64,000 nucleotides of DNA from Methylorubrum sp. B1-46 (GTDB lineage Bacteria > Pseudomonadota > Alphaproteobacteria > Rhizobiales > Beijerinckiaceae): positions 689,501-753,500 of the forward strand of contig NZ_CP088247.1 of the NCBI RefSeq assembly GCF_021117295.1, read 5' to 3'. Positions 2,866-10,677 of this stretch are shown piece by piece (position 1 is the first letter of the stretch; every line of letters begins with the position of its first letter). Position numbers and translations under genes: made by a program. The notes below the pieces were generated by a model, which saw only the letters and a program-made list of their open reading frames with translations, was not told where the DNA came from and searched no databases.

Positions 2866-3037
2866 GGTTTGAGGGCCCGATGCTGACGGGCGTCTTCTTA
2901 GGCGCCTCGCCGCCAGTCTGCCAGCGGCCGGCGGCGATGCATTTTGTGCACCGCGGCGAGACAACGCACCGGTTCGGCCGTCGAGGGTCTTTCGCCCAGG
3001 GGAATTCCTCCCTACCTTGGGCTCACCCGCAACGAAC

Positions 3038-3054
3038 GAAAGGAGGTGATCCAG
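3038..3054 (+). promoter_or_regulatory. Extended Shine-Dalgarno fully complementary to the 16S rRNA 3' tail
   Basis: These 17 bases (GAAAGGAGGTGATCCAG) are the exact reverse complement of the generally conserved 16S rRNA 3' end. The match runs up to the first base of the GTG start codon at 3054. Ordinary sites match 4-7 bases. The 16S sequence itself is from general knowledge and is not in this window. Confidence 0.75.
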
Positions 3055-3122
3055 TGTCTCATTGTCATCAGCCGTCGCCGACGACCAAGGCCTGGACCGT
3101 TACCTCCGGCGTGTGCGCCTAA
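3054..3122 (+). CDS. 22-residue leader-like peptide with perfect 16S-complementary RBS
   Basis: A short ORF starts at GTG 3054 and ends at TAA 3122. The product begins MSHCHQPSP and ends WTVTSGVCA: 22 residues with two Cys, two His, one Trp and no membrane segment. Support for translation is the exceptional ribosome-binding site that abuts the start codon. A 26-nt perfect palindrome lies 50 nt downstream and could terminate a short transcript. The next gene (3308-3772) points the other way, so this is a free-standing short transcription unit and not a leader of an adjacent biosynthetic operon. Function unknown; a ribosome-titrating or translation-sensing small mRNA is possible. Confidence 0.55.
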   Translation: MSHCHQPSPTTKAWTVTSGVCA

Positions 3123-3174
3123 CGCATTCGCAGGATCATGACAGGTTTCGTCGGACTGACCGGTTCGACAATGG

Positions 3175-3200
3175 AAGGGCCGCCCCATGGGGCGGCCCTT
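3175..3200. terminator. Perfect 26-nt palindrome, probable intrinsic terminator
   Basis: AAGGGCCGCC and GGCGGCCCTT flank a CCATGG centre, giving a fully symmetric 26-nt palindrome. It lies 50 nt after the 22-codon ORF and would also end transcripts coming from the minus-strand side. The U-tract is short (TT). Confidence 0.55.
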
Positions 3201-3307: not shown

Positions 3308-3772
3308 TCAGCGCGGCTGCACCTGGAACAGGGGCGCGGCCAGTGCCTCGCAGCGGGCGCGCCAGAGGTCGCGCTCGCTCCGTAGATCCTCCATCTTGCC
3401 GACTTCCTCGGCGATGTGAGCGCGCAGCTCGCGGATTTCCTGGGCCAGGATGGTCTGAAGCTCATCGCGGCGCTCGGCCTCGATCCGGAGCCGCGCCTTC
3501 AGCATCATGTTCTCGGCCATGATCTCGGCCACGTCCTCGTCGGCGGCCTCGGCCGACTTCGCGGCGGCGGAAACGAGGCGGGGCGACCAGGCGGCGCTGC
3601 GCGATTCGATGTCCGCCTCGACTGGAAGGGGCTCGGCCTCCTGCGTCTCGGCAGGCTTCGTCTCCGACACCGTCGCACGCATGATGGCGAGCCAGTCGCG
3701 CAGCGGCGCGGTGCTGGCCGAGGACCGGAGTCCGGTCTCGGGGGATGGGGCCTGTCGCGCGGGTTCCGACAT
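3308..3772 (-). CDS. Coiled-coil hypothetical protein
   Basis: A 154-residue soluble protein. Residues 1-75 are Pro/Glu/Ala-rich and probably disordered. Residues ~78-145 form a continuous heptad-like helix rich in Glu, Arg and Leu (for example RIEAERRDELQTILAQEIRE). The start is ATG 3772 with GAGGA upstream. No enzymatic motif. It is divergent from the Cys-rich gene ahead of ffh. A scaffolding or polar-adaptor type protein is conceivable but not shown. Confidence 0.7.
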   Translation of the reverse strand: MSEPARQAPSPETGLRSSASTAPLRDWLAIMRATVSETKPAETQEAEPLPVEADIESRSAAWSPRLVSAAAKSAEAADEDVAEIMAENMMLKARLRIEAERRDELQTILAQEIRELRAHIAEEVGKMEDLRSERDLWRARCEALAAPLFQVQPR

Positions 3773-4114
3773 CGGGGTAGTCCTCGGGCACCTCCAGCGG
3801 TGCGTTGCCGAGCATCAGAGCCCAACATGCTTAACGAACGGTAAAACTTAACCGTCCGCTTACGTGCGTTTCGGGCACAATCGTGCGTCGATCCGCGGGC
3901 GGGCCCTGCTTCAGCATCGACCGGCGGGAGCGGTCGCGGGATTGACTTGAGGCAGCCCAGGGCCTATCCGCCCGGCTCCATTTCGACGTTCGAACGTCAC
4001 GATGAGCCGCCGACCGGCCCGAGAGGCCGGAGGTCAACGCCCGACAGCGCGTGCGCGCCCTCGGGCGCCCTTGTCGTTGCCGTGACTTCGTCGAAGCGTC
4101 AAACGAGCCCTGCC
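3773..4114. other. Divergent intergenic region
   Basis: A 342-nt gap between two divergent genes with no convincing ORF. It contains an imperfect palindrome near 3838-3855 (ACGGT...ACCGT arms), a possible operator, and the promoter-like sequence listed separately. Confidence 0.5.
3942..3970 (+). promoter_or_regulatory. Candidate housekeeping promoter for the ffh region
   Basis: TTGACT at 3942-3947, then 17 nt, then TATCCG at 3965-3970. This fits the relaxed alphaproteobacterial sigma-70 pattern and lies 145 nt ahead of the small gene that precedes ffh. Sequence match only. Confidence 0.3.
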
Positions 4115-4352: not shown

Positions 4353-5915
4353 ATGTTCGAAGGCCTTTCCGACCGCCTTTCCGGCATCCTCTCCGGTCTG
4401 ACGCGCCGCGGCGCGCTGACCGAGGCCGACGTCACCGCCGCCATGCGCGAGGTGCGCCGCGCGCTCCTCGAAGCCGACGTGGCGCTGGAAGTGGTGCGCT
4501 CGTTCACCGACAAGGTGCGCGAGAAGGCGGTGGGCGCCGTCGTGTTGAAGTCGGTGACGCCCGGCCAGATGGTCGTGAAGATCGTCAACGACGAGCTCAT
4601 CGCGATGCTCGGCACCGATGCCAGCGTTGTCGATCTCAACGCGCCGGCCCCCGTCGCCATCCTGATGGTCGGCCTTCAGGGCTCGGGCAAGACGACCACC
4701 ACCGCCAAGATCGCCCGGCGGTTGTCGAGCCGCGACAAGCGGCGCGTCCTGCTCGCCTCCCTCGACACGCGCCGCCCGGCAGCGATGGAGCAGCTCGCGG
4801 TTCTCGCAAAACAAGTCGAGGTCGAGAGCCTGCCGATCGTCGCCGGTCAGTCGGCGGTGCAGATCGCGCGGCGCGCCATGGAGGCCGCCCGGCTCGGCGG
4901 CTTCGACGTGGTGATGCTCGACACCGCCGGCCGCACCACGGTCGACGAAGGCCTGATGAACGAGGCCGCCGAGGTGAAGGCGGCGACGAACCCCCACGAA
5001 GTGCTGCTGGTGGCCGACGCGCTCACCGGCCAGGACGCGGTCAACACCGCCCGCGCCTTCGACCAGCGCCTCGGCGTCACCGGCATCGTCCTGACCCGCA
5101 TGGACGGCGATTCCCGCGGCGGTGCGGCGCTCTCGATGCGCGCCGTCACGGGTAAGCCGATCAAGCTCGTCGGCGTCGGCGAGAAGGTCGATGCGCTGGA
5201 GGAATTCCACCCGCAGCGGGTGGCCAACCGCATCCTCGGCATGGGCGACATCGTCTCGCTCGTCGAGAAGGCGGCCGAGACCATCGACCACGAGCAGGCC
5301 CTGCGCACCGCCGAGAAGATGCGGAAGGGCAAGTTCGACCTCGAAGACCTGTCGATGCAGCTCGCCCAGATGGAGAAGATGGGCGGCATCGGCGGCCTGA
5401 TGAGAATGCTGCCCGGCATGGGGCAGATCAAGAAGCAGGTCGAGGGTGCCAACCTCGACGAGAAGATGTTCAAGCGCCAGCGCGCGATCATCTCATCGAT
5501 GACGCCGGGCGAACGCAAGAACCCCGACATCCTCAAGAACAGCCGCAAGAAGCGCATCGCGGCGGGTGCCGGCGTGAAGGTCGAGGAGATCAACAAGCTC
5601 CTCAAGATGCACCGGACCATGGCCGACATGATGAAGTCGATGGGATCGGGCAAGCGCGGCGGCATCGGCCAGGCGTTGGGCAACATGTTCGGGCTCGGCG
5701 GCGGCATGCCGGGCGGGCTGCCGGGGGGCATGAAGATGCCTCCGGGGATGCCCGAGCCGACGCCGGAGCAGATCGCCGAGATCGAGCGGCAGTTCGGCGG
5801 CAAGCTGCCGCCGATGCCGGGGGGGCTCGGCGGCGGCAAGATGCCGAACCTGCCAGGGCTCGGCGGCCCGAAGCTGCCGGGCCTGGGCGGCTTCCTGCCG
5901 GGTAAGAAGAAATGA
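4353..5915 (+). CDS. ffh: Signal recognition particle protein Ffh (SRP54)
   Basis: A 520-residue GTPase that binds 4.5S RNA and hydrophobic signal sequences and delivers ribosome-nascent chains to FtsY. N-domain helices occupy residues 1-90. The P-loop GLQGSGKTTTTAK is near 107, DTAGR near 190 and TRMDGDSRGG near 248. The Met-rich M domain (GMGQIKKQ, SRKKRIAAGAG) spans about 325-440. The last 80 residues form an unusually long Gly/Met/Pro-rich tail (repeats of GGMPGGLPGG type). Its stop overlaps the next start by 4 nt (ATGA), so it is translationally coupled to chorismate mutase. Confidence 0.97.
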   Translation: MFEGLSDRLSGILSGLTRRGALTEADVTAAMREVRRALLEADVALEVVRSFTDKVREKAVGAVVLKSVTPGQMVVKIVNDELIAMLGTDASVVDLNAPAPVAILMVGLQGSGKTTTTAKIARRLSSRDKRRVLLASLDTRRPAAMEQLAVLAKQVEVESLPIVAGQSAVQIARRAMEAARLGGFDVVMLDTAGRTTVDEGLMNEAAEVKAATNPHEVLLVADALTGQDAVNTARAFDQRLGVTGIVLTRMDGDSRGGAALSMRAVTGKPIKLVGVGEKVDALEEFHPQRVANRILGMGDIVSLVEKAAETIDHEQALRTAEKMRKGKFDLEDLSMQLAQMEKMGGIGGLMRMLPGMGQIKKQVEGANLDEKMFKRQRAIISSMTPGERKNPDILKNSRKKRIAAGAGVKVEEINKLLKMHRTMADMMKSMGSGKRGGIGQALGNMFGLGGGMPGGLPGGMKMPPGMPEPTPEQIAEIERQFGGKLPPMPGGLGGGKMPNLPGLGGPKLPGLGGFLPGKKK

Positions 5916-10599: not shown

Positions 10600-10677
10600 T
10601 GCGGTGCGCGATCCGTCATTTACCGCAGCGGGACACCTCCCCCCAACGGGAGGCAACCATCTGGAAGGATGGATGAC
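10600..10677 (+). ncRNA. Structured 5' leader of serC (serC-motif-like)
   Basis: Three consecutive stems precede the serC ATG. TGCGGT at 10600 pairs with ACCGCA at 10622; CCTCCC at 10636 pairs with GGGAGG at 10648; CCATC at 10657 pairs with GATGG at 10668. The last loop and stem contain the GGAAGG ribosome-binding site, so folding would hide it. An RNA called the serC motif is known upstream of serC in alphaproteobacteria. Position and the two terminal hairpins agree, but I could not compare with the Rfam model. Confidence 0.5.

What the first reader, a model, noticed from the sequence alone, without database searches (positions are those of the whole stretch)
3038..3200. 22-codon ORF with a 17-nt perfect match to the 16S rRNA 3' end
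Seen: the 17 bases 3038-3054 are the exact complement of the conserved 16S tail (GGCTGGATCACCTCCTTTC region) and touch the GTG start; the ORF encodes a 22-residue Cys/His/Trp-containing peptide; a 26-nt palindrome ends the unit. Known: normal SD matches are 4-7 bases, and overlong ones can stall initiation. Inference: a short mRNA that senses or titrates free 30S subunits, or a leader peptide of a system I do not know.
Basis: partly seen in the sequence, partly recalled or inferred. Interest (0 to 1): 0.75.

Follow-up and report, generated by a model that had tools for sequence, protein, structure and literature searches.

The report
Mini-mRNA with self-hidden ribosome site
A short bacterial RNA, filed in databases as a non-coding RNA of unknown role, looks like a tiny gene with an unusually strong ribosome landing site that is hidden by the RNA's own copy of the ribosome's matching end, so it may work as a switch that responds to free ribosomes.

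Summary
In detail: 3038-3054 is a 17-nt complement of the alphaproteobacterial 16S 3' tail, ending on the GTG of a 22-codon ORF (3054-3122); a 26-nt palindrome (3175-3200) closes the unit. The whole (3030-3199) is the known sRNA family RF01867 'CC2171' (101 bits, cut-off 75), role unknown. New here: (1) the site is in 59 of 59 genomes examined of the genus, and similar units occur in several alphaproteobacterial orders, mostly missed by RF01867 (1 of 18 loci over its cut-off). (2) Reading frame and ORF length are conserved (first stop at 14-26 codons in 149 of 157 elements; 29 and 22 in the other frames); the peptide much less, though some peptide constraint is possible. (3) A segment inside the ORF (CUGGACC-n3-ACCUCC) mimics the 16S tail and pairs with ribosome site and start codon; this helix is absent from the Rfam model and covaries. 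(4) Codons 3-5 pair with a segment just before the end hairpin. Best reading: a stand-alone mini-mRNA whose ribosome site is shared between its own 16S mimic and free 30S subunits, opened by ribosomes, closed without them. Sensing or titrating 30S is inference; expression is untested.

The parts
3013..3018 (+). TACCTT, a -10-like box seen in the genus as TACCTT, TACATT, TAGCTT, TAACTT or TACTTT; transcript start inferred near 3025-3030
   Evidence: upstream sequences of genus loci, by eye; the consensus scanner found no sigma-70 site, so inference only
3030..3199 (+). RF01867 (CC2171) RNA, whole match
   Evidence: cmscan 101.2 bits, gathering score 75, E 5.6e-20
3038..3054 (+). 17-nt extended Shine-Dalgarno, complement of the 16S 3' tail
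3054..3122 (+). 22-codon ORF, GTG start, TAA stop
   Evidence: frame and length conservation
3042..3054 (+). helix P1, 5' arm: GGAGGT + GATCCAG (ribosome site and first base of the start codon)
   Evidence: covariation of the GATCCAG part; GGAGG does not vary and so is not tested
3092..3107 (+). helix P1, 3' arm inside the ORF: CTGGACC (3092-3098) and ACCTCC (3102-3107), 16S-tail mimic; here A3049-C3097 is a mismatch and 3099-3101 bulge out
   Evidence: best internal duplex -20.8 kcal/mol
3060..3066 (+). helix P2, 5' arm CATTGTC (codons 3-5)
   Evidence: also in the minimum-energy fold
3167..3173 (+). helix P2, 3' arm GACAATG, directly before the end hairpin
3175..3200 (+). terminator-like palindrome AAGGGCCGCCCC-AT-GGGGCGGCCCTT (12-bp stem; no T run follows; not called by the scanner)
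   Evidence: stem covaries; scanner

Best explanation
A stand-alone, about 165-nt mini-mRNA. Its ribosome site matches the whole 16S tail and is held shut by a 16S-like segment inside its own 22-codon ORF (P1), while codons 3-5 are tied to the RNA's 3' end (P2); the two helices cross, so they form a pseudoknot or exclude each other. A free 30S subunit can displace P1 because its tail pairs more strongly; a ribosome crossing the ORF melts P1 and P2 and leaves the site open for the next one; without ribosomes the RNA closes. What is chiefly conserved is being translated and the fold, more than the peptide, so the RNA works as a ribosome-operated switch, most likely reporting or buffering free 30S subunits. 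Shown by comparison: RNA family, conserved frame and length, P1, P2 in its own group, end hairpin. Inferred: expression here, order of events, and the output (sensing, titration or RNA lifetime).
For: RF01867 match. Site in 59 of 59 genus genomes, 80 of 160 of the order with a shorter pattern, 79 of 385 of the class. First stop in the start-codon frame at 14-26 codons in 149 of 157 elements; other frames 29 and 22 of 157. The internal partner lies in one codon phase in 40 of 48 rows, 29 of 32 with a good match. P1: 84.5% of cells paired, slid controls 11.7-50.6%; 29 cells changed on both sides, shuffle mean 12.2. In 21 rows with a non-consensus site the own mimic fits the own site better than the consensus site in 13, equally in 7, worse in 1. 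P2: 92.2% paired, slid controls 20.7-56.8%. The assumed 16S tail pairs more strongly than the best internal partner in 155 of 155 elements scored. In the genus the P1 and P2 arms are nearly fixed as nucleotides: pairwise difference 0.05-0.09 per site against 0.31-0.40 outside.
Against: No transcript, ribosome-profiling or genetic data for this strain. The nested minimum-energy fold holds P2 and the end hairpin but not P1. A thermodynamic test of ribosome-site pairing is weak: mean z -1.13, 36 of 157 below -2. P1 has about as many pairs with a double change in shuffles (3.8) as observed (4) and is poor in some rows (L127 3 of 7 pairs, L120 4 of 7). P2 has only 5 double-changed cells, and one slid control (-3) has a higher covariation score, 0.126 vs 0.085. 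P1 and P2 were drawn from these sequences, which favours them over slid versions. P2 is hardly detectable in the Rhodobacterales (3 of 28) and 14-codon (2 of 7) groups. Peptide constraint is hinted at: outside the arms synonymous changes exceed expectation in the genus (0.467 vs 0.314), and over the ORF in the Rhodobacterales group (0.387 vs 0.282). One genus genome (G399) has the gene split, so it may not be indispensable.
Confidence: 0.45

Rival explanations
1. The product is the 22-residue peptide: a small-protein gene with a very strong ribosome site, the RNA structure only tuning its yield.
For: Conserved ORF; excess of synonymous change outside the helix arms in the genus (0.467 vs 0.314) and in the Rhodobacterales group; MSHCHQP and TW.VASG are nearly fixed among 21 distinct 23-codon genus ORFs. 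The Sinorhizobium meliloti SEP1 (23 aa, highest translation efficiency among 54 unannotated ORFs, Western-blot signal; PMC10117765, passages and section 23 read) could be a relative, which I could not test.
Against: The fixed residues lie mostly in the P1 and P2 arms, where changes are rarely synonymous (0.089 vs 0.273), as expected if the nucleotides are kept; of 18 rows whose site differs at the bases facing the Trp codon, 17 lack Trp, against 26 of 30 with Trp otherwise; in two other groups the synonymous share is at or below expectation (0.27 vs 0.263; 0.118 vs 0.216); across groups the peptides share little beyond MS.
Confidence: 0.22
2. A non-coding sRNA as Rfam files it: the 16S-like or the ribosome-site-like segment pairs with other RNAs in trans, and the ORF is incidental.
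For: Filed as sRNA in Rfam; a Caulobacter sRNA group with an anti-Shine-Dalgarno motif exists (PMC12559287, passages).
Against: Frame-specific stop position and mostly one-phase spacing are not expected of an incidental ORF.
Confidence: 0.17
3. A type I toxin mRNA kept silent by a 5'-3' helix and a hidden ribosome site.
For: Small ORF, hidden site and a helix joining start and 3' end recall such mRNAs (recalled knowledge).
Against: Peptides look neither hydrophobic nor conserved across groups (by eye); one copy in 78 of the 79 class genomes with a match.
Confidence: 0.05
4. A leader or attenuator of a downstream gene.
For: An arfB-like ORF is the first co-directional downstream ORF in 6 Rhodobacterales-type loci (family checked on one of them).
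Against: A terminator-like hairpin closes the unit; in the window a convergent ORF follows; no neighbour family is shared across the orders sampled.
Confidence: 0.04

Closest known systems
RF01867, CC2171 sRNA (Caulobacter; Rfam 15)
   Same: Whole element matches over the gathering score; P2 and end hairpin are in its consensus.
   Different: Typed as sRNA; the consensus shown has no P1; it misses most of the wider group (1 of 18 loci tested over the cut-off).
Extended Shine-Dalgarno mRNAs (Staphylococcus aureus; PMC13009471, start of abstract in the listings)
   Same: Ribosome sites longer than usual.
   Different: Here the complement is the whole tail, on a stand-alone mini-ORF, with an internal 16S mimic; I did not read that paper for such a case.
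RNAs with tiny ORFs such as rnTrpL/peTrpL of S. meliloti (PMC10117765, passages)
   Same: Small translated ORF on an RNA also listed as sRNA.
   Different: That one is leaderless and belongs to an attenuator before trpE; here a very strong ribosome site and no attenuated gene.
Pseudoknot or hidden-site autoregulated mRNAs such as ribosomal protein leaders (recalled)
   Same: Start region held by a crossing helix; regulation by a ribosome component.
   Different: The competing ligand would be the 16S tail of the 30S itself; no ribosomal protein is encoded.

Membership tests
RF01867 (CC2171) | Covariance-model score over the gathering score | tested here: met
   101.2 bits vs 75
RF01867 (CC2171) | Long-range helix and end hairpin of the consensus | tested here: met
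RF01867 (CC2171) | Non-coding (typed as sRNA gene) | tested here: inconclusive
   conserved ORF frame and length speak against it; translation was not measured
Leader peptide / attenuator | Directly followed by a co-directional regulated gene | tested here: not met
   convergent ORF 3308-3772 follows; no neighbour shared across orders sampled
Type I toxin mRNA | Conserved hydrophobic, usually membrane-spanning peptide | tested here: not met
   peptide lists, read by eye; no membrane predictor was run
Type I toxin mRNA | Antisense RNA antitoxin | not tested
   no expression data
Dual-function RNA | ORF translated | not testable with these tools
   needs ribosome profiling or a tagged fusion
Dual-function RNA | Separate function of the RNA in trans | not testable with these tools
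   needs genetics or RNA-RNA interaction data

The most novel reading that the evidence does not exclude
A class-wide RNA gauge of free 30S subunits in Alphaproteobacteria: the RNA carries both the full complement of the 16S tail and a copy of that tail, so free subunits compete directly with the internal copy; translation of a nearly throw-away ORF is the read-out that sets the state or lifetime of the RNA.
Probability: 0.28. Interest if true: 0.88.

Novelty: new variant of a known kind. Interest (0 to 1): 0.67.

Why it matters
An sRNA family with no role that I could find gets an anatomy and a testable mechanism. How bacteria sense spare translation capacity is, to my knowledge, open, and an RNA that carries both the complement and a mimic of the 16S tail would be a direct read-out of it. 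Widened beyond RF01867, the group gives many natural variants in tractable alphaproteobacteria.

Tried and rejected
Tried with little result: best-duplex energies against shuffles are weak. A first P2 test over the whole 3' region did not separate own from foreign partners (main group 9 of 78 at 5%); the window just before the end hairpin did better (two directions of the swap): main group 46 and 41 of 78, MSHG group 13 and 7 of 16, MSS group 7 and 5 of 21, Rhodobacterales group 3 and 1 of 28, 14-codon group 2 and 2 of 7. Neighbour clustering: the largest shared family covers 17 loci. Consensus scans found no promoter or terminator. Viral collection: 25 stretches, of which 7 resemble the element, 16 start ORFs of 47 codons or more and 2 start ORFs of 7 and 9 codons; I did not test whether any belongs to a phage rather than to flanking host DNA. 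One search used a mis-spaced pattern and says nothing. Literature: 'RF01867' is in two held papers; 'CC2171' is in nine, the other seven unrelated by title; searches on related wording listed nothing on it, judged from titles and abstract starts. The library is open-access only and the 2008 Caulobacter sRNA paper is not held, so earlier print cannot be excluded. Rejected: chance; cis leader and toxin (see rivals).

Corrected on checking: an alignment-based count gave one codon phase for the mimic in 48 of 48 rows, partly the aligner's doing; without alignment it is 40 of 48, and 29 of 32 with a good match. The genus shows more synonymous change outside the arms than expected. For these two facts I lowered the main explanation from 0.5 to 0.45 and the novel case from 0.3 to 0.28, and raised the peptide rival from 0.17 to 0.22; interest went from 0.68 to 0.67.

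Rows dropped: the set of 157 are pattern hits, not each proven a member (L074 is from a Gemmatimonadota bin); left out were three ORFs over 60 codons (L046, L052, L101), duplicates and hits near contig ends. A1 holds 48 of the 70 references; the 22 left out, mostly without a clear end hairpin, include good P1 cases (L029, L084, L107) and poor ones (L157, L158, L163).

Full report
What is there. Positions 3038-3054 read GAAAGGAGGTGATCCAG, the complement of the alphaproteobacterial 16S 3' tail, and the last G is the first base of a GTG start; the ORF runs to a TAA at 3120-3122 and a perfect 26-nt palindrome fills 3175-3200. The stretch 3030-3199 is Rfam RF01867, CC2171, at 101.2 bits against a gathering score of 75. 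The strain's own 16S is not readable in the held genome, but rrn copies on replicons of Rhizobium, Phyllobacterium, Paracoccus and Azospirillum carry exactly the tail assumed. The duplex with that tail is -32.4 kcal/mol; the best of 127 mechanical ORFs of 150 aa or more in the window reaches -18.0.

How widespread. The 59 genus genomes examined all hold the site, 56 once and 3 twice. Of the three second hits, L270 (G432) starts an unrelated ORF, while L266 (G400) and L269 (G398) are complete second copies. In one genus genome, G399, the gene is split (below). In the order 80 of 160 genomes match a shorter pattern, 5 of 160 its backwards control. In the class 79 of 385 match the longer pattern, none the control, and only G012 has two places. 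RF01867 gives 85 of 385 at E 1e-3 but 14 of 385 over its cut-off, with filters that lose weak matches; among 14 named control genomes it rings only in Caulobacter vibrioides. By their titles (placing of genera recalled) 111 of 118 are alphaproteobacterial, three are from other phyla (L046 and L052 with long ORFs, L074) and four are unresolved. Of 18 loci that I picked from that scan, one passes the RF01867 cut-off.

The ORF. In 157 distinct pattern hits (three with long ORFs, duplicates and hits near contig ends left out) ORF lengths cluster at 14 (7), 18 (45) and 20-26 (97) codons. The first stop in the start-codon frame falls at 14-26 codons in 149 of 157; in the other two frames in 29 and 22. 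The internal 16S mimic lies in one codon phase in 40 of 48 rows of alignment A1, and in 29 of 32 rows where it matches well; the 48 of 48 follows the alignment columns and overstates this. So insertions and deletions mostly keep the frame. The peptide is less clear. Synonymous shares of single-change codon pairs are 0.27 against 0.263 expected (MSHG group), 0.118 against 0.216 (14-codon group) and 0.387 against 0.282 (Rhodobacterales group). In 21 distinct 23-codon ORFs of the genus, codons in the helix arms hardly vary and are rarely changed synonymously (0.089 against 0.273), whereas outside the arms synonymous changes are in excess (0.467 against 0.314). My reading is that fold and frame carry most of the constraint and that some peptide constraint is possible.

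The two crossing helices. P1 pairs GATCCAG (3048-3054) with CTGGACC (3092-3098), extended by GGAGGT (3042-3047) with ACCTCC (3102-3107). The 3' arm resembles the 16S tail CTGGATCACCTCC with three extra bases. On A1 (48 of 70 candidates), P1 shows 84.5% paired cells against 11.7-50.6% for slid controls and 29 double-changed cells against a shuffle mean of 12.2; the number of pairs with a double change is no better than shuffles (4 vs 3.8). Of 21 rows whose site departs from consensus, the own mimic fits better in 13, equally in 7, worse in 1; of 18 rows that differ at the bases facing the Trp codon, 17 lack Trp, while 26 of the other 30 have it. So the helix rather than the residue is followed. 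Outside A1, L029, L170 and L171 pair GATCCTG with CAGGATC, and L084 and L107 pair GATCCGG with CCGGGTC. P2 pairs CATTGTC (3060-3066) with GACAATG (3167-3173): 92.2% paired against 20.7-56.8% slid, but few double changes, and one slid control has the higher covariation score. P1, P2 and the end hairpin together pair in 91.8% of 1053 cells. The Rfam consensus has P2 and the hairpin, not P1. The nested minimum-energy fold of the window also shows P2 and the hairpin, not P1, so P1 is either part of a pseudoknot or an alternative state. Other groups also carry anti-Shine-Dalgarno-like segments, in the Rhodobacterales type often after the stop codon, but P2 is hardly seen there.

Mechanism. For 155 of 155 elements scored, the assumed 16S tail pairs more strongly with the site than the best internal partner does; one tail was used for all. 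A free 30S could therefore open P1, and a ribosome crossing the ORF would melt the mimic and P2; without ribosomes the RNA closes. This is inference from anatomy. Whether the output is sensing, buffering of 30S or a change in RNA lifetime is not shown. The neighbourhood gives no target: no family of neighbours is shared across the orders sampled, the largest covering 17 loci. Among Rhodobacterales-type loci a queuosine-precursor-transporter-like ORF is first upstream in 17 and an arfB-like ORF first downstream in 6 (one of each checked by family model).

Literature. RF01867 appears in two held papers. In M. huakuii it is the predicted intergenic sRNA MH_s33 (PMC5596092, passages). In Caulobacter two previously predicted ncRNAs were reported as translated, not named in the passages I saw (PMC4117421). 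In S. meliloti SEP1, 23 aa and conserved in Rhizobiaceae, has the highest translation efficiency of 54 unannotated ORFs (PMC10117765, passages and section 23); its sequence was not visible, so identity with this element is only a lead.

A gene that mobile elements enter. In a Methylobacterium-like provirus contig (L245) the gene is cut at about codon 5, some 80 nt from an integrase-like ORF (Phage_integrase, 21.3 bits, below the cut-off of 27.1). In G399 (L265) it is cut at the same place, with the displaced 3' half recognisable from about 8980, some 0.7 kb further on. Both foreign halves bring a partner for CATTGTC (GGCAATG or GACAATG) and an end hairpin (fold z-scores -1.97 and -3.71). With two cases this is suggestive only, but it fits an RNA whose fold is worth keeping.

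Noticed in passing
L265:8231-9110 (G399) and L245:3881-5320: The CC2171 gene is split by foreign DNA at about codon 5; one case lies about 80 nt from an integrase-like ORF in a provirus contig. The foreign half supplies a new partner for CATTGTC and an end hairpin, so the gene may be an integration site.
   Followed up: partly
L266 (G400), L269 (G398): Second, diverged but complete copies of the element on contigs of 3.0 and 4.8 kb in two genomes of the genus.
   Followed up: partly
G012: The only one of 385 class genomes with two places, with different site variants (GATCGA and GATCCG); it may hold two element types side by side.
   Followed up: no
L240, L251, L256: A 14-codon type (KRCHLAGIAR-like peptide), seen mostly in Bradyrhizobium; in these three provirus contigs a tRNA gene lies about 150-230 nt from it.
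   Followed up: no
L032, L039 and other Rhodobacterales-type loci: The element often lies downstream of a queuosine-precursor-transporter-like ORF (17 loci) and in 6 loci directly upstream of an arfB-like ORF, a ribosome-rescue factor.
   Followed up: partly
window 4023-4075 and 10626-10677: Rfam matches to ffh sRNA (RF01793), upstream of the SRP54 gene at 4353-5915, and to the serC leader (RF00517).
   Followed up: no
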